64,000 nucleotides of DNA from a virus. Below, piece after piece: positions 30,732 to 45,708 of this stretch (positions are counted from its first letter, which is position 1; each line of letters begins with the position of its first letter). The notes under the pieces were generated by a model. It did not search any database. It was not told the DNA's origin and worked only from the letters and a program-made list of their open reading frames with translations. Position numbers and translations under genes: made by a program. Location of the stretch: IMG/VR virus record IMGVR_UViG_3300008113_000144, positions 28,981 to 92,980 of that record. One strand, given 5' to 3'.

Positions 30732-30752
30732 GATTTTGTTTGAATTGTTGAT

Positions 30753-30785
30753 AGTATAAAACCCCTCAACACAATTGTCAAGGGG
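30753..30785 (-). promoter_or_regulatory. Sigma70-like promoter overlapping a terminator (PeSL-like)
   Basis: TTGACA, 17-bp spacer, TATACT, leader ATCAACAATTCAAACAAA. The -35 lies in a 10-bp CCCCTTGACA/TGTTGAGGGG hairpin followed by TTTTAT. Start of the RNA-repair operon. Confidence 0.85.
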
Positions 30786-30798
30786 TCATTGATAAGTG

Positions 30799-31206
30799 TT
30801 ACGGATAGTGAGCAAGGATTTCAACAGTATATTTTATCTGTCCGCCAAACCCAGTAAATGTTGGGTCAACTTCTGCTTTAATTTCTGTTATAACTCCCTT
30901 TCCTCTTGCTACATCTTCCATAACTTTATGGAATTGCTGTTCGATATTTGTTTGATATGGGATAGCAACATTTCTGTGATATGTTCCTATCGTTGAACAT
31001 GTTATTCCATTAGAAACGAGAAGATTATTTGGATGAACATAATTACCAGTTAAAGTAATTCCTGTGTTTGTTAGTTGTGCTGTAGGAATTACAAACTGAT
31101 CTTGTTCTTCTTCAACTTTTTCGGTAGTTTCTTCTATTACTTCTTCTATAGATTCTGGTTTTTCGCCATAAACTTCTTCAAATTTATCAAGTAGTGGGTT
31201 GCTCAT
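30799..31206 (-). CDS. Hypothetical protein (135 aa)
   Basis: Acidic N-terminal helix (E-E-V-I-E-E-T-T-E-K-V-E-E-E near 21-34), then a beta-rich domain with T-G-F-G-G-Q-I-K-Y-T-V near the end. Unrecognised. Just upstream of a terminator-promoter. Confidence 0.65.
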   Translation of the reverse strand: MSNPLLDKFEEVYGEKPESIEEVIEETTEKVEEEQDQFVIPTAQLTNTGITLTGNYVHPNNLLVSNGITCSTIGTYHRNVAIPYQTNIEQQFHKVMEDVARGKGVITEIKAEVDPTFTGFGGQIKYTVEILAHYP

Positions 31207-31546
31207 AATCATCGTCCCATGGTGCTTTATGACTTAATACTCTAGCAATACTTTCATTAAATTGTGGTGGTTCGTTAAGTTTTTCCACAAGATTATCAAA
31301 ATCTTCTTTCGATAATGTAATACGTTCTGGCGGATAAGATCCTTTCCCCCAGAACTCTTCAAACCTATGAACGTAATTCATATGATCCCAACCATGATTG
31401 AGATTCAACCAAAAATCAGCATATCGTTGGTGATCATCCATTCTCCAATAATCATGATTAATAAGACGATACCAATACCAGAAAATTGTATACTTAATCG
31501 GACTAAATCCGATTATCCACTTGTTTAGCCACACTGGAAAGTTCAT
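31187..31546 (-). CDS. Trp/Tyr-rich hypothetical protein (119 aa)
   Basis: Aromatic-rich N-terminal half (I-F-W-Y-W-Y-R-L-I-N-H-D-Y-W near 21-34), possibly membrane-associated. Part of a chain of overlapping genes with unusual Trp content. Unknown. Confidence 0.6.
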   Translation of the reverse strand: MNFPVWLNKWIIGFSPIKYTIFWYWYRLINHDYWRMDDHQRYADFWLNLNHGWDHMNYVHRFEEFWGKGSYPPERITLSKEDFDNLVEKLNEPPQFNESIARVLSHKAPWDDDYEQPTT

Positions 31547-31791
31547 TGTCGATACCAGTTCAAATCACGTTGACGATAAGCAAGGAAATCAAATGAGAAT
31601 GTCAGTTTGTAGATAGTAATTGTAAATCCAAACAAACTTTCTCCTAAAATATTAACTAGAAGAATAGGTCTACATGGCCAATCATTCCAATCAAAGTTAA
31701 ATTGAAACAGATTGAATAAATTTGTACAAAATATGTTCAGATACCATTCATGACCAAAATCATAACAATAAAAGTAATCAAACAATTTCAC
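31543..31791 (-). CDS. Hydrophobic, aromatic-rich protein (82 aa)
   Basis: Phe/Leu/Trp-rich with membrane-like stretches (I-L-L-V-N-I-L-G-E-S-L-F-G-F near 44-57). Coupled on both sides by 4-nt overlaps. Unknown. Confidence 0.6.
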   Translation of the reverse strand: MKLFDYFYCYDFGHEWYLNIFCTNLFNLFQFNFDWNDWPCRPILLVNILGESLFGFTITIYKLTFSFDFLAYRQRDLNWYRQ

Positions 31792-31994
31792 GGCAAGTTC
31801 TCCAGTTCTTTGGATAATCTCATCATATCACCCTTGTCGATCACTGTCAAGTTGTCCAGTCTTGCTGCTGTCATGGTCTTGACATGTTCCATGGTTTTAC
31901 GAATAATAGCAGCGACCAGCTTTTGCTCTGTATCTGCCCAAGTGTTTCTTTCATTCCACACTTGTTCCATTAGTTTTTGTGCTCTTTCTGTCAT
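31788..31994 (-). CDS. Helical hypothetical protein (68 aa)
   Basis: M-T-E-R-A-Q-K-L-M-E-Q-V-W-N-E. All-helical, mixed charge. Coupled operon member. Confidence 0.65.
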   Translation of the reverse strand: MTERAQKLMEQVWNERNTWADTEQKLVAAIIRKTMEHVKTMTAARLDNLTVIDKGDMMRLSKELENLP

Positions 31995-32236
31995 TGGTCA
32001 CATAAGTCCATAGGTGGATAATAGGTTCTGGTATCTCCAGTTTCGGATGTCATCTTATCATTCATCTCAAACCATGTCAAGTTAAGCATATACCAGAACG
32101 TTGCCCAATATCCATCATACCATGTCAGACCATCACCTTCGTCAGCATAATGTGCCCACTCAACTGTATCAGTTGGCAGCGACATCCAATGCTTCCAATA
32201 ATCAAAAATGAGTGTAGTATGTTTGAGTGTTTCCAT
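31991..32236 (-). CDS. Trp-rich hypothetical protein (81 aa)
   Basis: W-Y-D-G-Y-W-A-T-F-W-Y-M-L near residue 39. Similar in composition to the 119- and 62-residue proteins in the same operon, which may be relatives. Unknown. Confidence 0.6.
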   Translation of the reverse strand: METLKHTTLIFDYWKHWMSLPTDTVEWAHYADEGDGLTWYDGYWATFWYMLNLTWFEMNDKMTSETGDTRTYYPPMDLCDQ

Positions 32237-32390
32237 AATTAAGATAATGCCAAAAAAGTTTTCTCATTCTATCTTCATTTGGGTATCCATCAAGATGGTT
32301 CCACATATGATTTCTCCAAGAATATACACAATACTCAAAGAGATAGAGTGATGTCCAGATAGTCCATTTCTTCCAAGTATCTTTTGTCAC
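32202..32390 (-). CDS. Trp-rich small protein (62 aa)
   Basis: W-K-K-W-T-I-W-T-S-L-Y-L-F-E-Y near residue 6. Overlaps the next gene by 35 nt. Unknown. Confidence 0.55.
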   Translation of the reverse strand: MTKDTWKKWTIWTSLYLFEYCVYSWRNHMWNHLDGYPNEDRMRKLFWHYLNYGNTQTYYTHF

Positions 32391-32683
32391 TTGAGAACCT
32401 CATCAACATCAACAACACCATAACCATCAATACCAAGTTTAAACCTTACAAAATCAGTAAGGTCTGTAGCATCTTGTTCATAAACACAGTACCCACCATT
32501 ACTATCACTTTCAGTGTAGTTGGTGAAATAATCGTCAAATGCTACCATAATGGCAAGAGCACGAGACTGATCATGTTCTGTAATGGTCTTATGTGGATGT
32601 GCCACAATACGAGTGATACAATCAAACAACTCTTCACGGGTGTAAGAAAATGCTTTTGCTTCTTCGTTGAGTTTGTAAGTCAT
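32387..32683 (-). CDS. Acidic hypothetical protein (98 aa)
   Basis: E-E-L-F-D-C-I-T-R-I-V-A-H-P-H near residue 17, an acidic Y-T-E-S-D-S-N-G-G-Y turn near 56, and a V-V-D-V-D-E-V end. 4-nt overlaps with both neighbours. Confidence 0.65.
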   Translation of the reverse strand: MTYKLNEEAKAFSYTREELFDCITRIVAHPHKTITEHDQSRALAIMVAFDDYFTNYTESDSNGGYCVYEQDATDLTDFVRFKLGIDGYGVVDVDEVLK

Positions 32684-32865
32684 AGATCATACGGGTGTTG
32701 AGGGTCTCTGGTCCAAAGTTTAGTATATACTAGCCATTTTTCTTGTTTGCTGTCCATTTCAGCAGTCCAGTGGATACCATTCTCATCAATAGCATCAAGG
32801 TAATGAATACCTTTACGGTCATCAATTACACGGGTAACAGTTATAAACTTTACTTTTTCAACCAT
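32680..32865 (-). CDS. Hypothetical protein (61 aa)
   Basis: M-V-E-K-V-K-F-I-T-V-T-R-V-I-D beta start. The chosen ATG overlaps the upstream gene by 8 nt, and an upstream start would extend into it. Unknown. Confidence 0.6.
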   Translation of the reverse strand: MVEKVKFITVTRVIDDRKGIHYLDAIDENGIHWTAEMDSKQEKWLVYTKLWTRDPQHPYDL

Positions 32866-33049
32866 CCTTCCACTCCTCGTAGCGTGTTCGGATTCTACCA
32901 TCATTCACAAAAACATTCAAGTGCCCTGTGCTACCATTCTCAAAATAGAATGCCATCCACACATGATGCCCTTCATCCATCACCTCATAATGATATGCTT
33001 TGATGTTATCAAGCAGAAACTCATCAGGGTCGTAGAGTTCTTTATCCAT
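32858..33049 (-). CDS. Hypothetical protein (63 aa)
   Basis: M-D-K-E-L-Y-D-P-D-E-F-L-L-D-N then V-W-M-A-F-Y-F-E-N-G near residue 30. Small alpha/beta pattern. Unknown. Confidence 0.65.
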   Translation of the reverse strand: MDKELYDPDEFLLDNIKAYHYEVMDEGHHVWMAFYFENGSTGHLNVFVNDGRIRTRYEEWKDG

Positions 33050-33051
33050 GA

Positions 33052-33825
33052 TTAAGAGAAGTTGTAGTGAACACGAGTGTGGAAATCTTTGTAGCAACTC
33101 TTATTAGAGAGCTTCATCATCACAGGAGGAATGTAGTATGAATATTCACTGAAGAAATCTTCTTTACTGAGGAATCTGAGACCATGAAGATGCCAAGTGC
33201 CAAACTGCTCATGGAATGCTCTCACAGCACGATATTCTTTGGTTGTACAAGAAACATACCTATTGGTAGATGTTTCAAAATCTTCAGGATGACCAGGATT
33301 CGCCTGTGTCATCATAATACACACGGTTTGACCTTCACCTGTGCCGAAGTATTCGGAAACCATATACACCCAATGCTCATCCACTGGGAATACATCACGT
33401 TGATACTTCTGCTCGTATTCTTTCATACAAGCATCGGCAACCAGTTGAAAGTTTTCTTTCTTCTTTGCTTGTAGTTCTTCAATCAGTTCTTCATGTTCAA
33501 TTTTACGAAGTTCTTTGAGAGCATCGGAATACTTATCAATACCAGCAATAGCAGTTCTCACAGCATCCATTCGTTCCTCCTTTTCAATATCAGCAAGTTC
33601 TTTTAGAGCATCGCTATTTTCAGCATACAGTTTTTCTACTGCTTCCCATGCTTTTTTGTTTGCTTCCTCTCGCTTTGCTGCTTCTTCAAGCATTTCTTCG
33701 TGTGTCATAAATCCATCGTATTGTGTGTTTAACCAAGGAGTATCATCTTTTTTTGAAGCCCAGCCTAAATTTGGCCATGTATCACGGTAGATTTCGTTGA
33801 GTTTCTCGTTGTCATAGATCATCAT
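33052..33825 (-). CDS. Coiled-coil protein with internal duplication (257 aa)
   Basis: Residues about 40-135 are a charged coiled coil in which S-D-A-L-K-E-L-x-x-I-E-x-E-E occurs twice (near 71 and 99). The C-terminal part is globular, with G-E-G-Q-T-V-C-I-M-M near 162. No family recognised. Confidence 0.65.
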   Translation of the reverse strand: MMIYDNEKLNEIYRDTWPNLGWASKKDDTPWLNTQYDGFMTHEEMLEEAAKREEANKKAWEAVEKLYAENSDALKELADIEKEERMDAVRTAIAGIDKYSDALKELRKIEHEELIEELQAKKKENFQLVADACMKEYEQKYQRDVFPVDEHWVYMVSEYFGTGEGQTVCIMMTQANPGHPEDFETSTNRYVSCTTKEYRAVRAFHEQFGTWHLHGLRFLSKEDFFSEYSYYIPPVMMKLSNKSCYKDFHTRVHYNFS

Positions 33826-34189
33826 CTAACTCCACATCTTTTACAAGATCTTTAAGACGATCAAAGAAATCTTCATCAAGCGGAATCAGTTTTTCTTCGC
33901 CACGATCAATACGATCACACATTTCCATCAAATCTTCAAGGAAGAATTTAGGATAGCATTCATCTTCTCCAAGAGATACCCAAAACCATTCATAACATTC
34001 TGTAAAAGGATCGTCAGTGTGAAGTAAAGTATAATCTTTGAAATTATCTGTCATGAGATCACGCCAAATTCGGAATGCTCCATGAATACTTTGCCATCCA
34101 GTCATCCAACAGTGACCAATCCAATACTCCCACCAATTCATTGTGGTTTTCTTAGATGCTGTTCCTTTTACAGATTTTGAAAATGTCAT
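33812..34189 (-). CDS. Hypothetical protein (125 aa)
   Basis: Starts M-T-F-S-K-S-V-K-G-T-A-S-K-K. W-W-E-Y-W-I-G-H-C-W-M near 18-28 and an acidic C-terminus. Possibly M-N-W-W-E-Y (residue 17) is the true start. Overlaps both neighbours. Confidence 0.6.
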   Translation of the reverse strand: MTFSKSVKGTASKKTTMNWWEYWIGHCWMTGWQSIHGAFRIWRDLMTDNFKDYTLLHTDDPFTECYEWFWVSLGEDECYPKFFLEDLMEMCDRIDRGEEKLIPLDEDFFDRLKDLVKDVELDDDL

Positions 34190-34413
34190 AGAAGATCGGA
34201 AATAATCAAGTTAACTTCTTCGATAATCTCTTCTTTGAGTTTATCGTAATCAGATTTGGGTGCCTCGCTGGTTTCTTCTTTTTCTTTTGATTTGGCAGCG
34301 TATTCAAGTTGAACAATCGTTGCTTGGAGAGTGATAATTTTGCTCTCAAGATCTCGTAAATGCTGCTCCAGGGGAACACAAGAACCAGAGTTGGTGTTGA
34401 CAGTAATTTCCAT
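34186..34413 (-). CDS. Coiled-coil protein (75 aa)
   Basis: Heptads in L-E-S-K-I-I-T-L-Q-A-T-I-V-Q-L-E (about 22-37), then a charged linker and another helix. Unknown. Confidence 0.65.
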   Translation of the reverse strand: MEITVNTNSGSCVPLEQHLRDLESKIITLQATIVQLEYAAKSKEKEETSEAPKSDYDKLKEEIIEEVNLIISDLL

Positions 34414-34431
34414 GATAAAGATTAATAAGAG

Positions 34432-34581
34432 TCAGTTCTTGGCGAGTTCAATGTAGAGCTTTTCGTATTTCATTTCAAGAAGCTCTACCATGTCATAATC
34501 ATCATACTCCTCCAATTCATTCAAAAGTTCCTTGGTGGTTGCCAATGAATTAAGGAGTTTTATCACTTTTAAATGTGTCAT
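34432..34581 (-). CDS. Helical hypothetical protein (49 aa)
   Basis: M-T-H-L-K-V-I-K-L-L-N-S-L-A-T-T. Acidic centre. TAATG overlap with the previous gene indicates coupling. Confidence 0.6.
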   Translation of the reverse strand: MTHLKVIKLLNSLATTKELLNELEEYDDYDMVELLEMKYEKLYIELAKN

Positions 34582-34763
34582 TAGTCAGACGCTCTCCAAC
34601 TTCTTGCTAGTGGTGAGGACTGATACTCTTCAACTGCTTGGAGAATCATGTGAGCAGATTCTAAAGCATCTGCTTCATCCCAGCCATCATCTTGCTGCCC
34701 ACTAATATAATAAGCATACAGATGATCTTTAATCACGTCCATCAGTCGGTCATACTTGGTCAT
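34581..34763 (-). CDS. Acidic hypothetical protein (60 aa)
   Basis: M-T-K-Y-D-R-L-M-D-V-I-K-D-H-L-Y. Helical. Leader with TAGTTCAAAC behind a strong promoter. Unknown. Confidence 0.65.
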   Translation of the reverse strand: MTKYDRLMDVIKDHLYAYYISGQQDDGWDEADALESAHMILQAVEEYQSSPLARSWRASD

Positions 34764-34785
34764 GAGATCGGTTTGAACTACAGTC

Positions 34786-34814
34786 AGTATAGGGGCTCAG
34801 GCGTCGTCTGTCAA
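34786..34814 (-). promoter_or_regulatory. Sigma70-like promoter
   Basis: TTGACA, 17-bp spacer, TATACT, followed by the shared GACTGTAGTTCAAAC leader. The -35 overlaps the end of the upstream gene. Confidence 0.75.
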
Positions 34815-35054
34815 GCGGTCTGTGTTGATCTTAAGATCTTTTTCCAGTTGCCTGGTCATCCTCTCAACACGCCACTTGAGAGTCCAGCGTGGGATTGGGT
34901 TGATAGGGTGAAACCTGACAATCCACCATGCTCTCTTGAGTTGAACTCCAGCATAGCGAACCATCAGGTCAATGAATATAGCTACATTTTTATCTACTAC
35001 CATCATATAAGCAATGATAGCAAAAATAGCAAATATTAGGTAGTAGTAAGTCAT
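34797..35054 (-). CDS. Conserved cyanophage membrane protein (85 aa)
   Basis: N-terminal membrane helix (Y-L-I-F-A-I-F-A-I-I-A-Y-M, about 5-17), then a basic W-W-I-V-R-F-H-P-I-N-P-I segment. Recurrent in cyanophages, role unknown. Confidence 0.7.
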   Translation of the reverse strand: MTYYYLIFAIFAIIAYMMVVDKNVAIFIDLMVRYAGVQLKRAWWIVRFHPINPIPRWTLKWRVERMTRQLEKDLKINTDRLTDDA

Positions 35055-35055
35055 G

Positions 35056-35481
35056 TTATCTATTATAGAAACGCCTATCGAATTTATCTTTCATCAAAGA
35101 TGATATATTTTCAAATCTTAACTGACACACATTTATCCATGATTGAATGTCTGAAAGATACTGATTAATGTCAGCAGAATTATCAATATACCATTGATTA
35201 GATTCTTGAATATCAAAATATGATATATTATTTTTCGTAAATATTAGATTTAGTTCTGAAGTATAGTATATTTTACGATAACGATAATCAATAAATTGGG
35301 TAAAGTTATCAATTAAAATACCTGTTTCTACTGCCAATCTCAACCCCGTTAAATGATTAACAATAGCAGTACAATTGGTCTCAACTATTTTATCATAACC
35401 AGTATAGTTATACCCATTAATAGCAGATTCTAAATCTCGGGAAAATCTTTCTAATTTTTGTAATCCTTCTATTAGGGTCAT
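35056..35481 (-). CDS. Hypothetical protein (141 aa)
   Basis: A helical protein with many Tyr/Asn residues, unrecognised. AT-rich. One-base spacer to the membrane protein gene. Confidence 0.6.
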   Translation of the reverse strand: MTLIEGLQKLERFSRDLESAINGYNYTGYDKIVETNCTAIVNHLTGLRLAVETGILIDNFTQFIDYRYRKIYYTSELNLIFTKNNISYFDIQESNQWYIDNSADINQYLSDIQSWINVCQLRFENISSLMKDKFDRRFYNR

Positions 35482-35496
35482 CGTGGTCTTTTTTTA

Positions 35497-35655
35497 TTAT
35501 TTATTTTGAGAACCAACCTTTTTCATTTCTATAGAACAATCATTACAAAAATAAGAAAATCCAGTTTTAAAGGACTTTACGATTTGATAATGATCTTTAT
35601 TCAGGGGTTTTTCTACCCCACACCGAGAACAATGCCTACTTGTTGTCGTAGTCAA
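35497..35655 (-). CDS. Small zinc-finger protein (about 52 aa)
   Basis: C-S-R-C-G-V-E-K-P-L and F-C-N-D-C form two Cys pairs, a treble-clef-like finger often attached to phage HNH proteins. No ATG lies at the right place. I use an in-frame TTG that gives a short overlap with the upstream gene, while the frame is open further up. Confidence 0.5.
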   Translation of the reverse strand: MTTTTSRHCSRCGVEKPLNKDHYQIVKSFKTGFSYFCNDCSIEMKKVGSQNK

Positions 35656-35836
35656 GTTGTTCCCAGTCTCCCCGTTCTTTTTTACGGAGACTCTTAAGTT
35701 CTTTATAAAGTTTTTTAATTTCTTGATAAGCATCTTCAGGACTCATTTTGTCGGCAATTTCAAGACCAGCGATTAAACCTACTTTATCGCCAAAGCGAGC
35801 TAGTGCTCGTTCAAATTCTGTTAAGCTTTCGTACAT
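35636..35836 (-). CDS. Helical hypothetical protein (66 aa)
   Basis: M-Y-E-S-L-T-E-F-E-R-A-L-A-R-F-G-D-K. Ends with a charged helix. It follows the methyltransferase gene by 10 bp and is probably in the same transcript. A TTG two codons earlier is an alternative start. Confidence 0.65.
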   Translation of the reverse strand: MYESLTEFERALARFGDKVGLIAGLEIADKMSPEDAYQEIKKLYKELKSLRKKERGDWEQLDYDNK

Positions 35837-35846
35837 AGGCAACCTG

Positions 35847-36686
35847 TCAGTTCATAAACGATTCTAGCACACTTTTGGGTTTTGGCTTTGGATGTTCTGG
35901 TTTCTTAACAATGATCAGCTCAGTCTTGTCATACCTCTTGGTTCCTGACATTTGATATGGAAATGTGAGATACCTAAATTCAGTCCACCCTTCATACAAG
36001 TTACGAACACTTTCGCTGTTGTCATAAGACATCACAAAGCCACCACGATGAGACTTTAGAATCCTAGCAAATTCTTCGTGATCAAATGTTTTGTGTAGCT
36101 CGCCATCCTTTCCATAATAATGACTCACAGTTTCGTAATATGGCGGATCAAGGTACATGAAATCATCTACATGCTTAGGAATAGTGTCGAAACAACTACC
36201 GTAGCTGAAGCTGAAGTTAGGATTGTAGAATTTCCTGAGCTTTTCAATGCCAACAAGACGAAACTCAGCACGAGAACGTACAGTAGAACAACCGATCTTG
36301 CCGCTGTAAGACCCTTTAATAGCAATATAAAATGCCCAAGCACGAGTAAACTTATCCTCGTGATCGAGCAGTGGCAAGAAAGATTTGTAGTGGTCACTAT
36401 CTTTTAATGGATAGTGCTTGGAAACCTCAGCAGCAATACGATCGCCGCCCTCGGTAGTCAGAATTTCCCAGAAATCAGCAAGAGAACGGAAAATATCGTA
36501 TGCTTGTACCTTGATTCCTTGGGACGCTAAAAGCATTTCTACAGAACCACCACCAAGGAAAGGAGAAACAACATAATCTACACCAGGATAAACATCCTTG
36601 ATGATGTCAATAATTTCATTCTTCATCCTGTTCTTGCCACCAGCGTAGCGATACAGGGAATGGTTGGTCACTTTAGATGGGGCCAT
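35847..36686 (-). CDS. dam: D12-class DNA adenine methyltransferase (279 aa)
   Basis: N6-adenine methyltransferase of the Dam/D12 class. Y-A-G-G-K-N-R-M (14-21) is the N-terminal AdoMet-contact motif, P-F-L-G-G-G-S (42-48) is motif I, and D-P-P-Y-Y (180-184) is the catalytic motif. It would methylate adenine in a short target. The start overlaps the HNH gene by 19 nt. It could protect phage DNA from the neighbouring nuclease, or from host enzymes. Confidence 0.92.
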   Translation of the reverse strand: MAPSKVTNHSLYRYAGGKNRMKNEIIDIIKDVYPGVDYVVSPFLGGGSVEMLLASQGIKVQAYDIFRSLADFWEILTTEGGDRIAAEVSKHYPLKDSDHYKSFLPLLDHEDKFTRAWAFYIAIKGSYSGKIGCSTVRSRAEFRLVGIEKLRKFYNPNFSFSYGSCFDTIPKHVDDFMYLDPPYYETVSHYYGKDGELHKTFDHEEFARILKSHRGGFVMSYDNSESVRNLYEGWTEFRYLTFPYQMSGTKRYDKTELIIVKKPEHPKPKPKSVLESFMN

Positions 36687-37654
36687 GAATAGTTGTTCCG
36701 AACGATACTGTTGTAAAACTTTTCCCTATTATAACCTGGATTGATGTGGTTTGACAACTCAATGATCTCCATGTTAAACAGGGCGTAGTCCTCACGCTGG
36801 ATTTGACCGTTGAGGTAGTTGCTCCTAAACAGTCTAGCACACTGGTAGATGTCCCGTGCTAGGTCAGGATCACCGAACAAGTGCTCGGCAGCAATCGTGT
36901 TGAGGATGTCCACATAGTTGCCCTGGGTGCCGCCAGCCCGCTTGATACCAGAAGTCTTGAGGATACGAAACTCACTCAGCGAAGACATACCAATGTTACG
37001 CCACACATACTTGTCGTATTTGGTGGTGGTACGAGTGAGCCAATACTGACACAGTTCATGCTCGCTCATCGAAAGAATCTCAGCTTTCATCTTATGATTA
37101 CGCTTCACAGCGTCCTTCATAGATTTATACCAGATGTTGTATTCCATTTCGCCCATTTCATAGCGACGCTCACAGCGTTCTATAAAGTTCTTAGCAGACT
37201 GCTTTTTGTTTTCGTTAATGTTAGCGAGAACAAGCACAATATTCTCTGGACGATCCCCAGCAGTAGGATCAATATGCTCTACCTGGAAATCTAGAATGTG
37301 GTACGGACCATCGCCACTGTAGGCACAGCAACGGTCCTGATTCAAATACATCTGTGTGATCATGATGCCCCTGGCTTCTGTAGGATTAGCACCAGGAGCA
37401 CCGATAGTATCGGTAGCGGGATCGTAGTATCCAGCCAGAAGTTGCTGTCCAGACTTACGAATATCTGTCTGCTCTTCTTTAGTGAAGGTGGCATATGCTT
37501 GAGCAGCAGACTCCCAAGAAAAATCATTGATCTTTGCTTGAGCAATAATAGCTTCAGCATGACCAGTAATAAGATCTTTACGAGCGATCACACCTTCAAG
37601 TTGTTTGAAGGTGAGTAGCTGATCCTTGTAATCAATTGAACGTTTGAGAGTCAT
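36668..37654 (-). CDS. HNH endonuclease (328 aa)
   Basis: HNH nuclease domain at about residues 108-152: C-C-A-Y-S-G-D-G start, E-H-I-D-P (126-130, catalytic His127), N138, and N-I-N-E-N-K-K-Q (145-152). The flanking helices are unfamiliar and longer than in simple homing endonucleases. Position between a DEAH helicase (4-nt overlap) and an adenine methyltransferase (19-nt overlap) suggests the cutting subunit of a helicase-guided system. Confidence 0.87.
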   Translation of the reverse strand: MTLKRSIDYKDQLLTFKQLEGVIARKDLITGHAEAIIAQAKINDFSWESAAQAYATFTKEEQTDIRKSGQQLLAGYYDPATDTIGAPGANPTEARGIMITQMYLNQDRCCAYSGDGPYHILDFQVEHIDPTAGDRPENIVLVLANINENKKQSAKNFIERCERRYEMGEMEYNIWYKSMKDAVKRNHKMKAEILSMSEHELCQYWLTRTTTKYDKYVWRNIGMSSLSEFRILKTSGIKRAGGTQGNYVDILNTIAAEHLFGDPDLARDIYQCARLFRSNYLNGQIQREDYALFNMEIIELSNHINPGYNREKFYNSIVRNNYSWPHLK

Positions 37655-38877
37655 CGTACATCAATGGCGGGTTGACCTTTAACAAAAATGGTGTCTACGA
37701 CTTCTTCCAGACGACGCTGGGTTTTCTTGCCGTAGTTCTTGAAGACAGGCACAGTCACGAAACCAGTGGACTTTCGGTACATGGCGAAGTTTCCTGCCTC
37801 AATCTTACCACAGGCAACGTCACGGGCGTCATCCTTGTTAAGACGGATAACACGACCGATGGTTTGTGCCATTTCCACAATTGGCAGGTTACGAAGCAGA
37901 ATGGTATGAGTCAGACCGTGAACGTTGATGCCTTCAGACAAAATGCTGTAGTGGAAGATGATGAACTTACGCTCAGGATCTTGACCCCAAGCGTTGAAGG
38001 TGTCGAAGAATGTCTCACGATCGACTTTAGTTTGATTCACATAAGCACCGAACTTGCTGGTAATATGGAGAACATCAAAACCACGCTCAGCGAGCTGTGT
38101 CAGGACTTTGGTGCTAGACAGCATCTGCCACAATACTTTGCTGCTAGGAGCAGCCACAAGCACCTTCTGGGCGTTCCTAGCGTCCAGTCCGTCGATCATG
38201 TCGATGAGGGTGCTAGCGTCGTTGTCAGCAGCACTGAGACCCTTCTGGCGTTCATAATCTACTTCATGAACTTGAATAGTTGGAGGAAGAATATTGCCTT
38301 GCTCAACAAGCTCAGGAGCAGAAATGTTAGAGATAATCTGACCAAACACAATCTTGTTGTTCATGCCAGTGCCAAGCGAAGAACGACGATGCTTGGGGGT
38401 AGCAGTGAAGTAATAGTAATTGGTAGCATTACACTCAGCAACGGAACTGAAGAAATCAGTACGAGTAGCGTTGTGTGCTTCGTCGTAATAAGCCACATCA
38501 ATATTGATTTCAGACTCGTTCACACGACGAAGAGAGTTGTACGTCGTAAAGATCAGCTTATGATTATCTACAATCTCATCCCAAGCAGCAATCACATCAG
38601 GCTTGGTAGTGCTCTTGTGGTGGCTTTCGCCACTGTGAACATGAAGAACGTTAGCAAAATCAATGTGCTCAAGAAACTCACTGGACAGTTGCTCTGCCAG
38701 GAGAATACGTGGAGCACACACAACAATGGTCAATGGTCTGCTAGATTCGTTCATCCGACGAATAGCATCAAAAATCATGATGAGAGTCTTGCCAGCTCCA
38801 GTCGGAGCGATGATCTGCCCAAACTGGTGCTTTTTGAGAGCGGCAAGACTCTGCTCTTGTTGGGGGCGGAGTTTCAT
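37651..38877 (-). CDS. DEAH-box SF2 helicase (408 aa)
   Basis: Superfamily 2 helicase of the restriction-enzyme type: Q-like start, Walker A A-P-T-G-A-G-K-T (24-31), D-E-A-H (132-135), F-T-A-T-P (motif III area, near 157), and Q-T-I-G-R-V-I-R (motif VI, about 335-345). Both RecA-like domains are present and nothing else. Such proteins move along or remodel DNA. First gene of a three-gene operon. Confidence 0.9.
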   Translation of the reverse strand: MKLRPQQEQSLAALKKHQFGQIIAPTGAGKTLIMIFDAIRRMNESSRPLTIVVCAPRILLAEQLSSEFLEHIDFANVLHVHSGESHHKSTTKPDVIAAWDEIVDNHKLIFTTYNSLRRVNESEINIDVAYYDEAHNATRTDFFSSVAECNATNYYYFTATPKHRRSSLGTGMNNKIVFGQIISNISAPELVEQGNILPPTIQVHEVDYERQKGLSAADNDASTLIDMIDGLDARNAQKVLVAAPSSKVLWQMLSSTKVLTQLAERGFDVLHITSKFGAYVNQTKVDRETFFDTFNAWGQDPERKFIIFHYSILSEGINVHGLTHTILLRNLPIVEMAQTIGRVIRLNKDDARDVACGKIEAGNFAMYRKSTGFVTVPVFKNYGKKTQRRLEEVVDTIFVKGQPAIDVR

Positions 38878-38899
38878 GGCAAATCAGGTCAATAAAGAT

Positions 38900-38933
38900 A
38901 GTATGTCACAAAAAAAGGGGCTCGTCAAGCCCC
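38900..38933 (-). promoter_or_regulatory. Sigma70-like promoter overlapping a terminator (PeSL-like)
   Basis: TTGACG, 17-bp spacer, CATACT. TGACG is the loop of a GGGGCT/AGCCCC stem followed by seven T. Ends the tail-fibre region and opens the helicase/HNH/methylase operon. Confidence 0.8.
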
Positions 38934-38941
38934 TGTGCCAC

Positions 38942-39322
38942 TTACTGAACTGGCGGCGGTATCCTGTTTGAAAAAGAACTCAAATTATCATTTGAATAAG
39001 CAAGATTACCTTCAGAAAATACCACAACCTGTACGAAATAATCTGGATCTCCGTCTCTATTCATCGGAAAGTTTTCGATAGCAAAATCGTATGCTGTTTG
39101 CTCATCAGGAAACTCAACAAAAGTAAATTCATTATAAAGTAGTTTATCAAAAAGTTCTGGTGATTCTGGTTGAAGATTTTGATAATAGACCGAATAAATT
39201 TGATTTGCTTTTTCAGCATCATCTACATTATCTGGTCCGATGGTTCTAAGAATCATCATGGTCTTTTGTTGTGATTCTGTATAATATTCAATCCATCCCA
39301 AAAAATCTCTAACTACCATCAT
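38942..39322 (-). CDS. Hypothetical protein of the fibre region (126 aa)
   Basis: Middle segment F-P-D-E-Q-T-A-Y-D-F-A-I-E-N near residues 70-83 and Y-F-V-Q-V-V-V-F near 94-101. Its 3' end merges with the terminator-promoter. Overlaps the chaperone-like gene by 4 nt, so it may be a fibre-assembly helper. Not recognised. Confidence 0.6.
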   Translation of the reverse strand: MMVVRDFLGWIEYYTESQQKTMMILRTIGPDNVDDAEKANQIYSVYYQNLQPESPELFDKLLYNEFTFVEFPDEQTAYDFAIENFPMNRDGDPDYFVQVVVFSEGNLAYSNDNLSSFSNRIPPPVQ

Positions 39323-40260
39323 TCTGCCTCCTGAATTTTAACTTTTTTAAACTCTTCCATATCTTTAATTAAATTATACTTCGTAACAAGGTTAGACATT
39401 GTTGGACTGAGTTTAAATCCTTGTTTTTCGTATTCACGTACCAAGTCACCAAATTTAATATACTGATCCATAAGTTCTTGAGATTTTTTAGGATCTAAGA
39501 AATCTGGGTTGGATACAAATTGATCATCTGTTTCCAAATACTTTACTTCAAATTCTGGATACTTTCCATAATATTGATCTGGTCTGATTGGCCACTTCAT
39601 TTCTTCTAGCCAAATAAGATAATCTAGAGAATCTTCAAAATCTGATGGTAACTTGTTTAGTTCACGAATTTTAGATCTCCACATCACCCACATTTCACGC
39701 TCATTTTCAAATACTTCTGGAGCGTCTGGCAAAATTCTCCAGTCAGTATCTCTCAATAATTTTTCGATAAAATCAATATTTTCTTTATTAAATTGTGTTA
39801 GATAATATGATTTCTTTGATAGTTCAAGATAGTCTTTTAAATTACTATAATTTTTAACTTCAGTATCAACAACGATGGCGGCATTTAAAACATTATACAA
39901 TTCTTTTGCTTGTTCTACGGTCAAAAAATCCGAAGTATATTGAATCCACTTTGTACTTTTAGTGGAAAAATCATACTTCATTTTTTCTTTTTCAAGAATA
40001 TATTCACCACTTTCGTAAATGGCAAATAATATAATTCTATCATTATCATTAGACCATTCGTTAGGAATGTTTGCTAAAATATTTTGATTGATAGCATCAC
40101 TAATTACTACAGTATTATATACATACTGACCATCATCATCTTTTGTTCTCAAAAGAATCAATCGATTTTTAGCATCATATTCTAAGATTGTTTTTTTCTC
40201 GTCTGGAGAAGGCAATCTTTCAAATACAAAGTCGTCAGGATTGAATTTTAATTTTCCCAT
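39319..40260 (-). CDS. Tail assembly chaperone-like protein (313 aa)
   Basis: The segment near residues 170-230 (L-R-D-T-D-W-R-I-L-P-D-A-P-E, then M-W-V-M-W-R-S-K-I-R-E-L) fits the pattern of phage tail-fibre assembly chaperones, in which a D-W-T-x-L-x-D-A-P motif is followed by a Trp/Arg helix. The N-terminal domain is unassigned. Location directly after the giant fibre gene supports that role. Confidence 0.65.
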   Translation of the reverse strand: MGKLKFNPDDFVFERLPSPDEKKTILEYDAKNRLILLRTKDDDGQYVYNTVVISDAINQNILANIPNEWSNDNDRIILFAIYESGEYILEKEKMKYDFSTKSTKWIQYTSDFLTVEQAKELYNVLNAAIVVDTEVKNYSNLKDYLELSKKSYYLTQFNKENIDFIEKLLRDTDWRILPDAPEVFENEREMWVMWRSKIRELNKLPSDFEDSLDYLIWLEEMKWPIRPDQYYGKYPEFEVKYLETDDQFVSNPDFLDPKKSQELMDQYIKFGDLVREYEKQGFKLSPTMSNLVTKYNLIKDMEEFKKVKIQEAE

Positions 40261-40277
40261 TGCTGTAGTTTTTTTAG

Positions 40278-40285
40278 TATTTAGT
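40278..40285 (-). promoter_or_regulatory. Possible weak late promoter box (ACTAAATA)
   Basis: Six of eight bases match TATAAATA, 17 bp before the chaperone-like gene. Weak. Confidence 0.3.
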
Positions 40286-43270
40286 TTAATATGCCTTAAT
40301 CATCCACCTTACTTTTGTGTATGGCGTCACTAAAGGAACTAGATCATTTGGAGAAAATGCTGGAGTAGGAATTAACTGTTTACCAAATCCTAAAGTAAAG
40401 GTTCCAGGGAATACTTCAAGACCAACCTGACCAGCTGTAAACGTAACAGCTACAGAAGAATCTGATGGAGCACCACCAAACGATGTTCCGCCGCCAGTGC
40501 TATTGCCATAAGAGAATACATTAGTAATATCAGTAATGGCAGAAAGAGACAAGTAGTGTGAGTGGGATAATTTTTCTGTTGGACTAAATTTAGTGACGCT
40601 AACAAATCTTCTAGGAATTGTAACAGCACCAATCCATCTCAAATTATCACCAGATGTAGTGTCAGCTGGTAGAGCATTTTGATCTACATAATTGTAAATT
40701 TCTGAGAATTGAGCTGAGTTTGGCTGATTAATTGTAATAGAGTTCCAAATTCTAGCATTTTTAGGACTACCACAACTTACGGTAAAGATAAAGTTAAATA
40801 AACATTCGACCGTGCTGCTAGATGGTCCTGGATCAGTATTTGGATTTAAGAAGTTTCCTCTATAAGTGCTTTCAGCACAATTTCCATATTCTCCAATTTC
40901 TCTACCCCAAACAGTTCCGTATGTAGCGATTGGATTTGTTGTTCTAATAGTATTTGCTGAGTCATCACTATTAGATGGATCTCCAATTAATTGATATGAT
41001 GATCCAGTATGGTATCCCCACAAGTTAATTGACGCCGATCCTTCTAATGGGGGGAAAGCATCAGTTCCTGATTTTTGACCAATATCAACAGCACCTGGAG
41101 CACCACCTTGGCTTCCCCAAGAAACACGACCTTTAAAACTTCCAGCATCTGCTTGACCAGTTACAAGATCATGTGTATGGAATGGAGCACTGAACAGTTT
41201 TGTTTCTTTTAATGAAACATTTCCTGATACTTGTCCACTGGTTAAAAATTCAACAGTATCACTAACTTCACTATATCCTGTAGTTGTAATTTGAGCAATG
41301 GCGAAGAATTGGCTATCTTGTGCTGGCTGTCCTGTTGCTGGAGTTTCTACTTGCTCAAGCTCATCAATACCTGGATCAGCAATGGTATCAATATACCACA
41401 TGCCGCCAAATGATCCTGGTTTAAATGCCGAACCATTTCCTTTTTGCTTGGCTGGTCCATACTCAGGAGTAACAATAGGAGAAGCTGGAGATTGGTTATC
41501 TACGTTACCAACTCCCAAGAGTTTCCTGTTTCTCATATCAGGAACTCTAAATTCGCCGCTAAGATTAGCTCCAAAAGTATTTCCAATTACTTCATATAAT
41601 AATGGATAATCATTTGGAGAAATAAATCTACCATCACAGTAAATCCAGCTTGGAAATCTAGAATTTGCTTTACCATTTAACTTATCATCAGAAATACCCC
41701 ATCCATCCTCCTGAGTATTATCTCTAAAAACAGGCATGATAGAACCAACAGGCATACCATCAAATTTAGTATTAAACTTAATTTGGTCAGTTCCTAATAC
41801 TTTAATAACAAATGGACTACTATAATATTGTCCGAAAATTGGCTCTGGTTCTGGTCCTGGAGTAGTTACAGAGAAGGTAGTGTTATATGATCCAACATAT
41901 ACATTTGTCGATAATGTAAAAGCATCAATCTCACTAGATTTTAATCTAACTTGAACAGTATTTCCATTAGCTACTGTGCCAGGATTTGTAGCTGTTAATA
42001 ATTGGAAGCTACCTCCATTAATACTAATTAAACCACCACCTGTAGAGAAAATGCTAACAGATTGCCCTAATCCACTAATAGTAATAACTTCAGAATCAGT
42101 AAATACGCCTGGACCAGTGGCTAAAATAGGAGTAAACAAGAACGGTGATGGAGAAGTTCCAAGTTGACCTTTGTTTGTAACAGTCCAAGTAGTGCTATAT
42201 GTTCCAACAGTTACAACAAATTGTTTTGCTTCTCCAGTAAGACTACTAGTAGTATATGTTAACTGAATACTATCTAAATTATTTACTGTAAATGTTGTAG
42301 TATTGCCAACTGGTGCTATTGGATTAGAAGTATCAGCATTAATAATTACAGATGCTCCACCCGTCACAGTAGCAGTAATAGCTGTGTCAATACCTTGAAT
42401 AGTTCTTGTATTACTGAAGACAGTAGTGTTTAATTCTTGATTAGATAAATCAGTAAAAACAAATCCAATTGGTGTCGTGTCTTTTTGTTTTTCTGTTCTA
42501 ACTTCCCACTGAACTGCCGATCCAGTACCAACAATAACATCGGTAAATAATGATGTCAAATAATCAGGAGAAGATAATAATCTAACTTTAAATCCTTGAC
42601 CGTTAGAAATTTGTCTTGGAGAATTTTGATAGGCATCACAAACTCCACCAGTACAAATAGCAATTTGGGCAGAGTTTGAAGCGGTTATACTTACGGTGGT
42701 GTTAATTCCAGAGACCGTAATAATATCACTTTCGACTAAAGTATTAATTGGTTGATCTATTTTATTTGGAATAACAAATGGAGCTGGTGTATTGTCAGGT
42801 GGTTCACCAGTATTAACATTAAAGAATGATGTTACATTACCAATAGTAACATTTGCTCGATATGTAGTGAAGAAATCATTTCCAGTTGTAAATCTTACTT
42901 GTACATAACCTTCGTTGAAAATTGTAGCCGATTGGCCCCACGCTCCACAAGTGTTTGAATCATTTGGATTACAAGTTCTTACCTGAGCATTATTTCCAGA
43001 TAATGTAGACACAACTCCACCAGTAATACCAAAAATCTGAACTTTATCTGAAGTGTATTGAGTAGCAGGCAAAGCATTATCTACTTCAGGGAAGAAAAAT
43101 GGTTCTGGAGTAATATCTTGTGGAGCATAATTTAACATCACATAACCAAATTCTTGTGGACCAGCACCAAAACTTAAGTTAGTGGTTTCAGTGATAGTTA
43201 CATATGCCGAATTATAATAAGCACCGCCAGTAGTACCACCCAAAGCGTCAAGGTCTGTAGTTTGAATCAC
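40286..43270 (-). CDS. Tail fibre/adhesin, C-terminal part (994+ aa) with collar domain
   Basis: Tandem Ig-like repeats of about 95-110 residues fill the first half (recurrent T-V-S-G-I-x-T and V-x-V-G-x-Y). A phage tail-collar domain follows (G-S-I-M-P-V-F near residue 508, W-I-Y-C-D-G-R-F-I-S near 540, F-R-V-P-D-M-R-N-R near 580), then a receptor-type region with H-T-H and H-S-H-Y metal-binding motifs. Only GTG is available as start at 43270. The frame is open for 140 codons upstream (to 43690), where it carries a Gly-rich domain continuing the 43680-45671 frame, so these two are one gene split by a frameshift. Confidence 0.8.
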   Translation of the reverse strand: MIQTTDLDALGGTTGGAYYNSAYVTITETTNLSFGAGPQEFGYVMLNYAPQDITPEPFFFPEVDNALPATQYTSDKVQIFGITGGVVSTLSGNNAQVRTCNPNDSNTCGAWGQSATIFNEGYVQVRFTTGNDFFTTYRANVTIGNVTSFFNVNTGEPPDNTPAPFVIPNKIDQPINTLVESDIITVSGINTTVSITASNSAQIAICTGGVCDAYQNSPRQISNGQGFKVRLLSSPDYLTSLFTDVIVGTGSAVQWEVRTEKQKDTTPIGFVFTDLSNQELNTTVFSNTRTIQGIDTAITATVTGGASVIINADTSNPIAPVGNTTTFTVNNLDSIQLTYTTSSLTGEAKQFVVTVGTYSTTWTVTNKGQLGTSPSPFLFTPILATGPGVFTDSEVITISGLGQSVSIFSTGGGLISINGGSFQLLTATNPGTVANGNTVQVRLKSSEIDAFTLSTNVYVGSYNTTFSVTTPGPEPEPIFGQYYSSPFVIKVLGTDQIKFNTKFDGMPVGSIMPVFRDNTQEDGWGISDDKLNGKANSRFPSWIYCDGRFISPNDYPLLYEVIGNTFGANLSGEFRVPDMRNRKLLGVGNVDNQSPASPIVTPEYGPAKQKGNGSAFKPGSFGGMWYIDTIADPGIDELEQVETPATGQPAQDSQFFAIAQITTTGYSEVSDTVEFLTSGQVSGNVSLKETKLFSAPFHTHDLVTGQADAGSFKGRVSWGSQGGAPGAVDIGQKSGTDAFPPLEGSASINLWGYHTGSSYQLIGDPSNSDDSANTIRTTNPIATYGTVWGREIGEYGNCAESTYRGNFLNPNTDPGPSSSTVECLFNFIFTVSCGSPKNARIWNSITINQPNSAQFSEIYNYVDQNALPADTTSGDNLRWIGAVTIPRRFVSVTKFSPTEKLSHSHYLSLSAITDITNVFSYGNSTGGGTSFGGAPSDSSVAVTFTAGQVGLEVFPGTFTLGFGKQLIPTPAFSPNDLVPLVTPYTKVRWMIKAY

Positions 43271-43690
43271 AGCTCCAGATTCATCTACTTTATTTGCTGG
43301 GATTGTACCTCCAGCACCCCAGCCGCCACCTCCACCGCCGCCACCGCCGCCGATAGTAGTGTTGTCTTGACCATCAGAACCAGCAAAGTTTAAACCACTT
43401 AAATTAGTTCTTAATGTTGCTTGTCCAGTATAATTTCCATTTTGTGTTGATGTAGGAACTGTAGTGTCATTACCAGCACCAGCTCCACCGCCGCCACCAC
43501 CAGCAAGAACTAATAATGTTCCATCGCCTAAAGTAATAGCAGAAGCGCCACCGCCACCGCCGCCTCCTCCAGATCTATCTGAAGGTCCAGCATTTCCGCC
43601 ATCACCACCGATGGCATATCCCCAACCGCCGTCGCCACCAGCAGCACCATTTAAAAAGCTTACCCCAAATCGTCCAGCGTCACCTGGAAA
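43271..43690 (-). other. Open in-frame extension encoding a Gly-rich domain
   Basis: 140 codons without a stop, in frame with the downstream fibre part. Encodes several runs of 6-10 glycines separated by short strands, such as A-I-T-L-G-D-G-T-L-L-V-L-A. This is the missing middle of the split adhesin. Confidence 0.75.
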
Positions 43691-45671
43691 TAGTTAAACT
43701 ACTTGGGGCATCATCCCCACCATTTCCGCCGCCACCGCCATAAAGAACAAAACTTAATTGTTCTACATAAGATGGAAGATTATATTCAATAAATTCTGTA
43801 GCACCAGATCCACTCGTGCTATAATAGATATTATCTTCAATTTTAGTTACAATTTTCCACGTATCTGTGTAAGTTCCAACTTTATAAACAGCATTAACTA
43901 ATGCTCCCTGAGCAGCAGATGCTGTTGCTCTAACATAGATTACTTCAGCACTAGCTGGTACAGTAACAGTTTTAGCAAATGTAATATTATCTACACTAAC
44001 TTGTACGTTTGCTCCCGCTGTTGATTGAGCATCTACAGCTTGTGCTGTTGTGGAAACATCAAGACCTTCAATAGGAACAGCAACAACATAAGTTTGTCCA
44101 GGTAAAGCAGTGTAATTATCTCTTGCTCTAAATGGATATGGCGTGCTTCTAGAAAGTCTAGTTTTAATTGTAATTGTATCTGTTTTATCTGTGAAAGTTG
44201 GTGTAGTAGGACCAGCGGTTGGGTTTCCATTTGGACCACCAGAAGGAGGACCAGCTAATCTAATTGAACTTGTCTTTGTTGTATTAAAATTGGGAGAAGA
44301 GGTAATTCTTAAATTTACCTGATCTCCATTTTGAACATACAGTTGCTGTACCCAATTTCCTGTATTGTTTTTCCTAATTTCAGCATCACCACTTGTTACA
44401 CTACAAAGAACTTGTACTGTTTGGTTTGCTGTATTTGTAGTTAATATAGGTAAAATTCCAGAAATATAAGAAGGGCTAATTGGTGCTGCTGCTTCAGCAT
44501 ATGTGCCACTTCCATATTCTGTTCCTAATCCAGATACACTAAAGTTAGCATAGTAAACTCTATCTGGATCAGCATTATTAAATGTATTTGTAGAGCTGAC
44601 AGTTACATTATCTGGAGTTCCTGTTAATAACTGAATATTATCATCTGAAGGAGTAAAGATAGGAGATAAAGAAACAGTGTTTGGATACCTATCTACTTCT
44701 GTCCAAATATACCAACTATCTGTTCTAGTTCCAGTAGATTGAACAACTTGGAAAGTTCCTGAACCGTATGTTCCAGCATCATTATTTTCATAACCACCAG
44801 CAAGAGTATCTTGATCGTTTGAAAATATTGTTACTGATCCAGATGTTTTTGTTGTGTAGGTAGAACCTATAGCAATTCTTGTGTATAAAGTATTGTTTAA
44901 AACTAATCCTGTTACAGATTGAGACCAGTTAACGTTATCTTTAGAAATTTGAACGTTTCCAGTAGATGTTGCTCTAAGAACAGCATCTGTATCAATACCA
45001 GTAATTGGTATATTTTGTGTTTTATATCCACCAAAGTCATTAGCTGATACATCAACAAAATCAGTAAATTGCCAAGAATCTACAAGTTGATCTTGTGCTC
45101 TAGTATTAATAGTCCAAGTATCTGATACCACAGCACTTGGTTGCCCTACATTAGTGCCCCATGTTTCATCTGATAAGGTAAGAGTTACACTGGTTCTTGT
45201 AGTATACCAATTTTCGGTAGTAAGTCTAAGTCTAATTTTATCTCCTTGTCTTACTGTTCCGCTAGTAATCCAGGGTCCGATAGATCCCCCACGATCAATT
45301 CTAAAAGCAGCAGCAGCATTTTGACCAGTAGTAGAACCTTTTGGACCAGTAGTAGAAACAGAAATAGAAGCAGGAATTTCAATTTCAATACCATTAACTA
45401 ATATTTCATTAGAATAGTATGTTGTTGATTTTTCAAATGTAGTGGTTACAGTTCCTCCACTAGCAGTTAAAAATCCTTGTTGATCGTTGAAAGAAAAAGT
45501 ATCTGGGCGAGAATCTGGAATTCTAGTTCCAAAAATAATGCCATCGGGATCATTGCCAGTACCAATCCTGACATTAACTGTTACTTTTGTATTCCATGTT
45601 GATGGAGTTGGGTATCTTATTTCTACCTGATCTCCAAGACCAACATATACTGGCGTACTACTAAATGGCAT
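43680..45671 (-). CDS. Tail fibre/adhesin, N-terminal part (663 aa), frameshifted
   Basis: Repeated Ig-like units with I-T-G-I-D-T-D-A, L-R-I-T-S and W-x-I-x-T strands. The end enters a Gly-rich region (Y-G-G-G-G-G-N-G-G-D-D) and then stops abruptly at a TGA while the Gly-rich coding continues in the +1 frame. A single extra base near 43685-43690 would explain this. Without it the protein would be about 1796 residues with the downstream part. TATAAATA late box 29 bp upstream. Confidence 0.8.
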   Translation of the reverse strand: MPFSSTPVYVGLGDQVEIRYPTPSTWNTKVTVNVRIGTGNDPDGIIFGTRIPDSRPDTFSFNDQQGFLTASGGTVTTTFEKSTTYYSNEILVNGIEIEIPASISVSTTGPKGSTTGQNAAAAFRIDRGGSIGPWITSGTVRQGDKIRLRLTTENWYTTRTSVTLTLSDETWGTNVGQPSAVVSDTWTINTRAQDQLVDSWQFTDFVDVSANDFGGYKTQNIPITGIDTDAVLRATSTGNVQISKDNVNWSQSVTGLVLNNTLYTRIAIGSTYTTKTSGSVTIFSNDQDTLAGGYENNDAGTYGSGTFQVVQSTGTRTDSWYIWTEVDRYPNTVSLSPIFTPSDDNIQLLTGTPDNVTVSSTNTFNNADPDRVYYANFSVSGLGTEYGSGTYAEAAAPISPSYISGILPILTTNTANQTVQVLCSVTSGDAEIRKNNTGNWVQQLYVQNGDQVNLRITSSPNFNTTKTSSIRLAGPPSGGPNGNPTAGPTTPTFTDKTDTITIKTRLSRSTPYPFRARDNYTALPGQTYVVAVPIEGLDVSTTAQAVDAQSTAGANVQVSVDNITFAKTVTVPASAEVIYVRATASAAQGALVNAVYKVGTYTDTWKIVTKIEDNIYYSTSGSGATEFIEYNLPSYVEQLSFVLYGGGGGNGGDDAPSSLTISR

Positions 45672-45699
45672 TTATTTTATGACAATTTCCGCTATTTCT

Positions 45700-45707: not shown

Positions 45708-45708
45708 T

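What the first reader, a model, noticed from the sequence alone, without database searches (positions are those of the whole stretch)
35847..38877. Phage operon of DEAH helicase, HNH nuclease and Dam-type methyltransferase
Three genes overlap tightly (4 and 19 nt) behind a single terminator-promoter. Seen directly: Walker A and DEAH plus motif VI in the helicase, E-H-I-D-P/N-I-N-E-N-K-K in the HNH protein, and D-P-P-Y-Y in the methylase. This combination of translocase, cutter and protective modifier is the parts list of a restriction system, yet it does not match a classical Type I, II or III arrangement: there is no specificity subunit and the nuclease is a separate HNH protein. Inference: a phage-borne exclusion system against competing phages or host DNA, or a host-genome degradation module with self-protection.
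Basis: partly seen in the sequence, partly recalled or inferred. Interest (0 to 1): 0.72.

Follow-up and report, generated by a model that had tools for sequence, protein, structure and literature searches.

The report
Cyanophage-borne nuclease–methylase pair avoiding YGCR
A virus of photosynthetic bacteria appears to carry its own two-gene DNA-cutting and DNA-protecting kit, and phage genomes that carry the kit have lost almost every copy of one short DNA word (C/T-G-C-A/G), which points to the word the kit recognises.

Summary
The three genes are as described: coordinates, 4- and 19-nt overlaps, motifs and terminator. The grouping needs correction. The helicase is a core cyanophage gene (528 GenBank phages) that normally lies beside a DUF7219 gene. 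The unit is an HNH–methylase pair inserted between those two, conserved in about 38 IMG/VR contigs and found once without the helicase. Both genes are under purifying selection with intact catalytic motifs.

New finding: every carrier genome measured lacks the degenerate palindrome YGCR (observed/expected 0.04–0.21, against 0.42–0.85 without the pair, one exception). An unbiased 4-mer scan picks its words. Relatives with a similar helicase but an empty slot keep YGCR. Avoidance changes protein sequence (Met-His/Gln at 0.56 of expectation; 1.11 in non-carriers). Methylase homologs with the window's DNA-contact-like stretch come with YGCR avoidance; those with a different stretch do not.

Best reading: an orthodox Type II-like restriction-modification system carried by a phage, specific for YGCR, with a divergent HNH nuclease. 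The methylase is nearest to N4-cytosine M.CbeI, not Dam, which fits because CGCG has no adenine. Cutting and methylation are inferred. Main rival: avoidance driven by host restriction. The use (host DNA destruction or excluding rival phages) is unresolved.

The parts
38900..38934 (-). Rho-independent terminator (38934-38916) with overlapping promoter-like site TTGACG-17-CATACT (38928-38900); the -35 lies in the terminator loop
   Evidence: Scan; same arrangement in L006, L008, L009, L010. Promoter activity not tested.
37651..38877 (-). SF2 DEAH helicase, core cyanomyovirus gene; resident neighbour, not judged part of the unit
   Evidence: T4-like GC 36 in Syn1; found without the pair in sister phages
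36668..37654 (-). HNH nuclease, predicted restriction endonuclease of the pair
   Evidence: dN/dS 0.04-0.09
37202..37279 (-). HNH active-site segment EHI...N...N (H127, N138, N147 invariant)
35847..36686 (-). alpha-class (D12) DNA methylase, nearest solved relative M.CbeI (N4-cytosine)
   Evidence: dN/dS 0.03-0.07
36249..36326 (-). Methylase stretch IAIKGSYSGKIGCSTVRSRAEFRLVG, putative target-recognition hairpin that predicts YGCR avoidance
   Evidence: equivalence to the Dam DNA-contact hairpin is from own knowledge
36135..36149 (-). Methylase catalytic motif DPPYY
35636..35842 (-). DUF7219 gene that directly follows the helicase when the pair is absent (far border of the insert)
23502..46406 (.). 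22.9-kb stretch around the operon with no YGCR site; only 17 sites in the whole 64-kb window

Best explanation
The HNH gene and the methylase gene form a phage-borne, orthodox Type II-like restriction-modification pair that recognises the degenerate palindrome YGCR. The methylase is proposed to place N4-methylcytosine on YG(m4C)R and the HNH enzyme to cut unmodified YGCR, of which a genome without the pair holds roughly 5-10 per kb. Newly replicated phage DNA is methylated too slowly to be safe everywhere, so carriers have been selected to lose nearly all YGCR sites; the remaining sites (for example 23 in the window genome, 206 in G005) are kept safe by the methylase. Incoming or host DNA that has the sites and lacks the methylation is shredded. 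Shown: conservation and linkage of the pair, intact motifs, purifying selection, YGCR avoidance in every carrier measured, and correlation with the methylase recognition stretch. Inferred: cutting, methylation, which base is modified, and the benefit (host-DNA destruction or exclusion of co-infecting phages).
For: (1) The pair is co-conserved in about 38 contigs with overlapping or abutting reading frames and is an insert between helicase and DUF7219; in G046 it occurs where no such helicase was found. (2) Catalytic residues are invariant and dN/dS is low for both genes. (3) YGCR observed/expected is 0.04-0.20 in 17 cyanophage carrier genomes against 0.42-0.80 in 23 others; the groups do not overlap. 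(4) Of 136 four-base words, TGCA (0.09 vs 0.66) and CGCA/TGCG (0.13 vs 0.75) stand far out in carriers against helicase-level relatives, next being GGCC (0.18 vs 0.41); CGCG is low in both groups. (5) Carriers fall in three separate helicase clades, and carrier G001 shares more similar proteins with non-carriers G028/G031/G032 (median 72-78%) than with clade-B carriers (45-52%). (6) The methylase stretch SGKIGCSTxxSRAExR goes with YGCR 0.05-0.28, SGDLGHTSxxSRKNL with 0.66-0.76, also in unrelated phages G046 (0.21) and G026 (0.29). (7) Met-His/Met-Gln pairs (ATG-CAN always makes TGCA) are at 0.56 of expectation in carriers, 1.11 in others; the other dipeptide sets tried show no comparable carrier deficit. 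(8) No C-to-T replacement signature. (9) Published: only orthodox Type II systems cause avoidance of their sites in the genome that carries them, and leftover avoidance can mark a lost system (PMC4687349); G028 and G032, empty slot with YGCR 0.48 and 0.42, fit that.
Against: No biochemistry. Hosts are unknown and contigs are metagenomic fragments. Strong avoidance of other 4-mers (CCGG in most, GTAC 0/164 in Syn1, RGCY in S-H38) exists in cyanophages without this pair, so host restriction can produce such footprints. G026 avoids YGCR with the methylase beside a ParB-like gene and no HNH in the held 56 kb. HNH proteins differ widely (down to about 22-24% identity) although the inferred site stays the same. 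The carrier/non-carrier phylogeny rests mainly on one helicase tree with about three independent contrasts; another linked gene could be the cause.
Confidence: 0.7

Rival explanations
1. Host-driven: carriers infect hosts with a YGCR-specific restriction system. Site loss and the methylase are both anti-restriction adaptations; the HNH is incidental or captured.
For: Phages commonly avoid host restriction sites (PMC6286503). Other 4-mers are fully avoided in phages without this pair (Syn1 GTAC 0/164). G026 has methylase and avoidance but no HNH in the held part.
Against: Coliphages with a protective base modification lose site avoidance (2.4% vs 55.8% of sites; PMC6286503), yet here methylase carriers are the avoiders. 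Relatives with an empty slot do not avoid YGCR to the same degree. The HNH is under strong purifying selection. No close homolog of either protein turned up in GTDB genomes, though those scans reach close relatives only.
Confidence: 0.17
2. Unprotected or methyl-directed attack: the HNH cuts YGCR regardless of, or only after, methylation, destroying host DNA; the phage survives by lacking sites and the methylase marks rather than protects.
For: Avoidance is near complete (0.04 in the window genome). HNH enzymes directed at modified DNA exist (the DUF1524 half of GmrSD described in PMC12707154).
Against: Carriers still hold many YGCR sites, for example 206 in 156 kb of G005, which would be lethal if every site were cut. 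The gene pair has standard restriction-modification layout.
Confidence: 0.06
3. A free-standing HNH homing endonuclease beside an unrelated orphan methylase, spreading by recombination through helicase and DUF7219.
For: Empty and filled slots at one site; HNH homing genes are common in T4-like phages (own knowledge).
Against: Homing enzymes recognise long sites and would not deplete a 4-bp word genome-wide. The methylase is adjacent to this HNH type wherever both ends are held and the pair is retained in an unrelated phage.
Confidence: 0.03
4. One reading: a three-part translocase-nuclease-methylase restriction system in which the helicase works with the HNH.
For: Tight overlap or abutment of helicase and HNH in three clades.
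Against: Helicase found without the pair in the inspected GenBank phages and in many sister contigs; pair found with YGCR avoidance in G046, where no such helicase was found in the held 49 kb.
Confidence: 0.04

Closest known systems
Chlorella virus restriction-modification systems (CviJI and others; PMC7019647)
   Same: Virus-borne, nuclease and methylase genes adjacent, short 2-4-bp sites; CviJI recognises RGCY, the complementary class to YGCR. Thought to degrade host DNA.
   Different: Eukaryotic algal viruses; nucleases packaged in virions; homology to this HNH not tested here. Published tests did not find them responsible for mutual exclusion.
CbeI / M.CbeI of Caldicellulosiruptor bescii (PMC3425538, PMC8616854)
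   Same: M.CbeI is the nearest solved relative of the methylase by sequence (1.6e-21) and fold; alpha-class N4-cytosine methylase at a GC-centred 4-bp site with a DPPY motif.
   Different: Bacterial, site GGCC, about 24% identity; the recognition stretch differs.
HNH-containing large proteins of cyanophages S-TIM5, ACG-2014f, RN05-S, S-CBWM1
   Same: Share the helical segment plus HNH core; S-TIM5 has a C5 methylase gene beside it, ACG-2014f a dam-like gene two upstream.
   Different: 528-859 aa, some annotated as virion proteins, no YGCR avoidance in the stretches held; association with a methylase is looser.
Dam-like methylases of cyanophages (PHROG 56)
   Same: Same D12 fold class.
   Different: About 31% identity and located elsewhere; their neighbours were not surveyed.
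Clade C methylases (L080, L095 and others)
   Same: About 60% identical, also near a related helicase.
   Different: No HNH, different recognition stretch, no YGCR avoidance; a neighbour is a ParB-like phrog_27790 protein.

Membership tests
Type II (orthodox) restriction-modification system | Separate nuclease and methylase genes, linked | tested here: met
Type II (orthodox) restriction-modification system | Both enzymes with intact catalytic motifs under purifying selection | tested here: met
   HNH H127/N138/N147 and DPPY invariant; dN/dS 0.03-0.09
Type II (orthodox) restriction-modification system | Avoidance of the recognition site in the carrying genome (seen in about half of known cases, PMC4687349) | tested here: met
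   YGCR 0.04-0.21 in all carriers; that YGCR is the recognition site is itself the inference
Type II (orthodox) restriction-modification system | Nuclease and methylase recognise the same site | tested here: inconclusive
   Methylase recognition stretch correlates with YGCR avoidance; nuclease specificity not measured
Type II (orthodox) restriction-modification system | Methylation blocks cleavage | not testable with these tools
   needs enzymes
Type I or Type III restriction system | Specificity subunit or methylase working with a helicase-nuclease Res/HsdR subunit | tested here: not met
   No specificity subunit in the operon; helicase not fused to a nuclease and separable from the pair
Dam (GATC) methylase | NCBIfam TIGR00571 dam above cut-off | tested here: not met
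   56.3 bits vs 114.85
D12-class (alpha) DNA methylase | Pfam PF02086 above cut-off | tested here: met
   67.6 vs 22 bits; fold match to M.CbeI and Dam
Alpha-class N4-cytosine methylase (M.CbeI-like) | Modifies cytosine N4 | not testable with these tools
   Nearest relative is M.CbeI; CGCG lacks adenine, so cytosine is the only candidate among the usual methylated bases if the site is YGCR
HNH nuclease superfamily | beta-beta-metal fold with H-N-N/H motif | tested here: met
   Pfam HNH_4 below cut-off, but model matches 4h9d over 55 residues and the motif is invariant
Homing endonuclease | Long target site, intron/intein or free-standing mobility | tested here: inconclusive
   Empty site seen, but a 4-bp genome-wide footprint is not expected

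The most novel reading that the evidence does not exclude
Lytic cyanophages carry a self-contained restriction-modification system with a specificity not known to the author (YGCR, proposed N4-cytosine) and a divergent HNH nuclease family, used to destroy host DNA or competing phages; the phage genomes are purged of the site so thoroughly that protein sequences changed.
Probability: 0.6. Interest if true: 0.82.

Novelty: new variant of a known kind. Interest (0 to 1): 0.72.

Why it matters
Restriction systems are usually read as host defence. Here a phage seems to hold one as its own tool, with a genome-wide footprint that names the target word and predicts the modified base. That turns a vague guess into a cheap in vitro test, offers a possible new frequent-cutter specificity, and suggests a way to find other phage-borne restriction systems: look for words missing only from genomes that hold a given nuclease-methylase pair. 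It also bears on how co-infecting cyanophages compete.

Tried and rejected
Dam/GATC hypothesis: GATC is not avoided. Methyl-induced mutation as cause of site loss: TGTA/TACA not specifically enriched, ratio 1.06. Host origin: scans of GTDB genomes with HNH and methylase profiles found no relative (close relatives only); plasmids: none. The relation between helicase and HNH as a functional complex was dropped after G046. PADLOC: no defence-system match for the HNH; the methylase hits MTase_II models. The ParB-like neighbour of G026 is not an HNH relative. In the helicase tree L197, L200 and L204 were labelled 'none' by my script because the HNH reading frame was called too long; they carry the pair, as does probably L208 (cut off); corrected labels are used. 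A scan with the divergent HNH of L053 found only its own two contigs.

Full report
Observation. The three reading frames, overlaps and motifs are real. The window is part of a 92,980-base IMG/VR virus record whose genes (tail assembly chaperone family, T4-like core helicase) mark it as a T4-like cyanophage relative. The terminator before the helicase is convincing; the promoter is a weak match by count, but terminator and the TTGAC-loop/CATACT-like arrangement are kept in four relatives despite stem changes.

What belongs together. The helicase has relatives in 528 GenBank phages, with one place covering at least 80% of it in 525, and in Syn1 is annotated as T4-like cluster 36. In Sf-FR1 (73% identical helicase) and S-CAM3 the helicase is directly followed by the DUF7219 gene that in the window follows the methylase. 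The HNH and methylase are therefore an insert of two genes at that junction. The order helicase-HNH-methylase recurs in about 38 IMG/VR contigs, some cut off by a contig end, in three well separated helicase clades. In phage G046 the same pair, HNH 348 aa and methylase 63% identical, lies elsewhere and no such helicase is found in the held 49 kb. The unit is the pair.

The proteins. The HNH protein has no solved relative by sequence. An alignment of 22 sequences keeps H127, N138 and N147; the model (mean pLDDT 85) matches a solved HNH nickase over the core only, so the flanking helical domains have no recognised counterpart. Distant kin are large cyanophage proteins in S-TIM5, ACG-2014f, RN05-S and S-CBWM1. 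The nuclease diverges faster than the methylase: clade B about 45-48% vs 72-80%, and L053 about 22-24% (full-length by profile, 99.4% probability) vs 78%. The methylase is a D12 enzyme whose nearest solved structure is M.CbeI, an N4-cytosine methylase of GGCC. Both genes show dN/dS of 0.03-0.09 where it could be computed.

The footprint. A composition check showed TGCA at 5 of 216 expected in the window. Across genomes, carriers are all low and others not. A scan of all 136 four-base words, carriers against contigs with similar helicase and no pair, singled out TGCA and CGCA/TGCG (z of -28 and -21; the next word, GGCC, z -5); with CGCG, low in both groups, these spell YGCR. YGCR observed/expected is 0.04-0.20 in 17 carriers and 0.42-0.80 in 23 genomes without the pair. 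At locus level, 30 carriers lie at 0.04-0.28 and 24 non-carriers at 0.30-0.80; the lowest non-carrier, L172, belongs to G028, which is 0.48 over 100 kb. Avoidance is even along the 190 kb of G001. ATG followed by a CAN codon always makes TGCA; Met-His plus Met-Gln pairs are 86 against 154 expected in carriers and 146 against 132 in others, while the other dipeptide sets tried show no comparable carrier deficit. Site loss did not go preferentially to TGTA/TACA, so it looks like selection, not deamination.

Phylogeny. On the helicase tree carriers occupy three supported clades separated by non-carriers (label correction). By shared proteins, carrier G001 is nearer to non-carriers G028, G031 and G032 (median 72-78%) than to clade-B carriers (45-52%), though phages are mosaic, gene overlap between fragments is limited, and one clade-A2 carrier (G005) is at 70%. 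G028 and G032 have an empty slot but intermediate YGCR (0.48, 0.42), as expected of a recent loss; published work describes such traces in bacteria (PMC4687349). The pair could also lie outside the fragments.

Link to the methylase. Methylase homologs fall into two types at a stretch (window residues about 121-146) that by my knowledge of Dam corresponds to the DNA-contacting hairpin. Type SGKIGCSTxxSRAExR: YGCR 0.05-0.28 in every locus, including unrelated phages G046 and G026. Type SGDLGHTSxxSRKNL: 0.66-0.76 by locus. This ties YGCR to the methylase. Because CGCG has no adenine, protection of all YGCR sites needs a modified cytosine, in line with M.CbeI.

Mechanism and rivals. The best fit is an orthodox Type II-like system. 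Published data say only such systems produce avoidance in the carrying genome (PMC4687349), and that coliphages with protective base modification do not avoid host sites (PMC6286503), which weighs against the methylase being only an anti-restriction device. The residual sites in each genome argue against a nuclease without protection. The host-driven rival is not excluded, since hosts are unknown and other words are avoided in phages lacking the pair. G026, with the methylase, a ParB-like neighbour and no HNH in the held part, avoids YGCR (0.29) and is unexplained.

Known or new. Chlorella viruses carry comparable pairs (PMC7019647). In the papers searched I found no report of such a pair in cyanophages; the library is partial. 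I know of no characterised enzyme with YGCR specificity, which is recall and not a database check.

Noticed in passing
L286 (G046) 11894-13231: Next to the HNH-methylase pair lie a second, beta-class-like methylase (TSPPY) and a small possible PD-(D/E)XK-type protein; the 49-kb contig has 0 GGCC against 154 expected.
   Followed up: no
L157 (Sf-FR1), L159 (Syn1), L160 (S-H38), L122-L126 (G020), L127-L129 (G022): Other strong 4-mer avoidances: GTAC 0/164 in Syn1, RGCY words in S-H38 and Sf-FR1, ACGT 8/117 in G020, CATG 28/171 in G022, CCGG absent in most cyanophages. Causes unknown.
   Followed up: partly
L094 2800-3888; L095 4968-5966; L080 2842-3843: A ParB-like protein (phrog_27790) lies next to the methylase in G026 and clade C; possible alternative partner or chance neighbour.
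   Followed up: partly
L035 4762-7152; L033 5110-7689; L001 5431-7089: Large cyanophage proteins with this HNH core; ACG-2014f and RN05-S copies share an N-terminal segment, S-TIM5 is annotated as virion protein. A packaged nuclease is conceivable.
   Followed up: partly
window 63104, 63618: Two of the 17 residual YGCR sites of the window lie inside tRNA genes.
   Followed up: no
L172 / G028: Empty slot with intermediate YGCR avoidance; downstream genes up to 90% identical to the window but tail genes 26-30%, so a mosaic.
   Followed up: partly
L214 / L244 (G029): Avoids TGCA (0.23) but not TGCG (0.70), a different specificity from the carriers.
   Followed up: no
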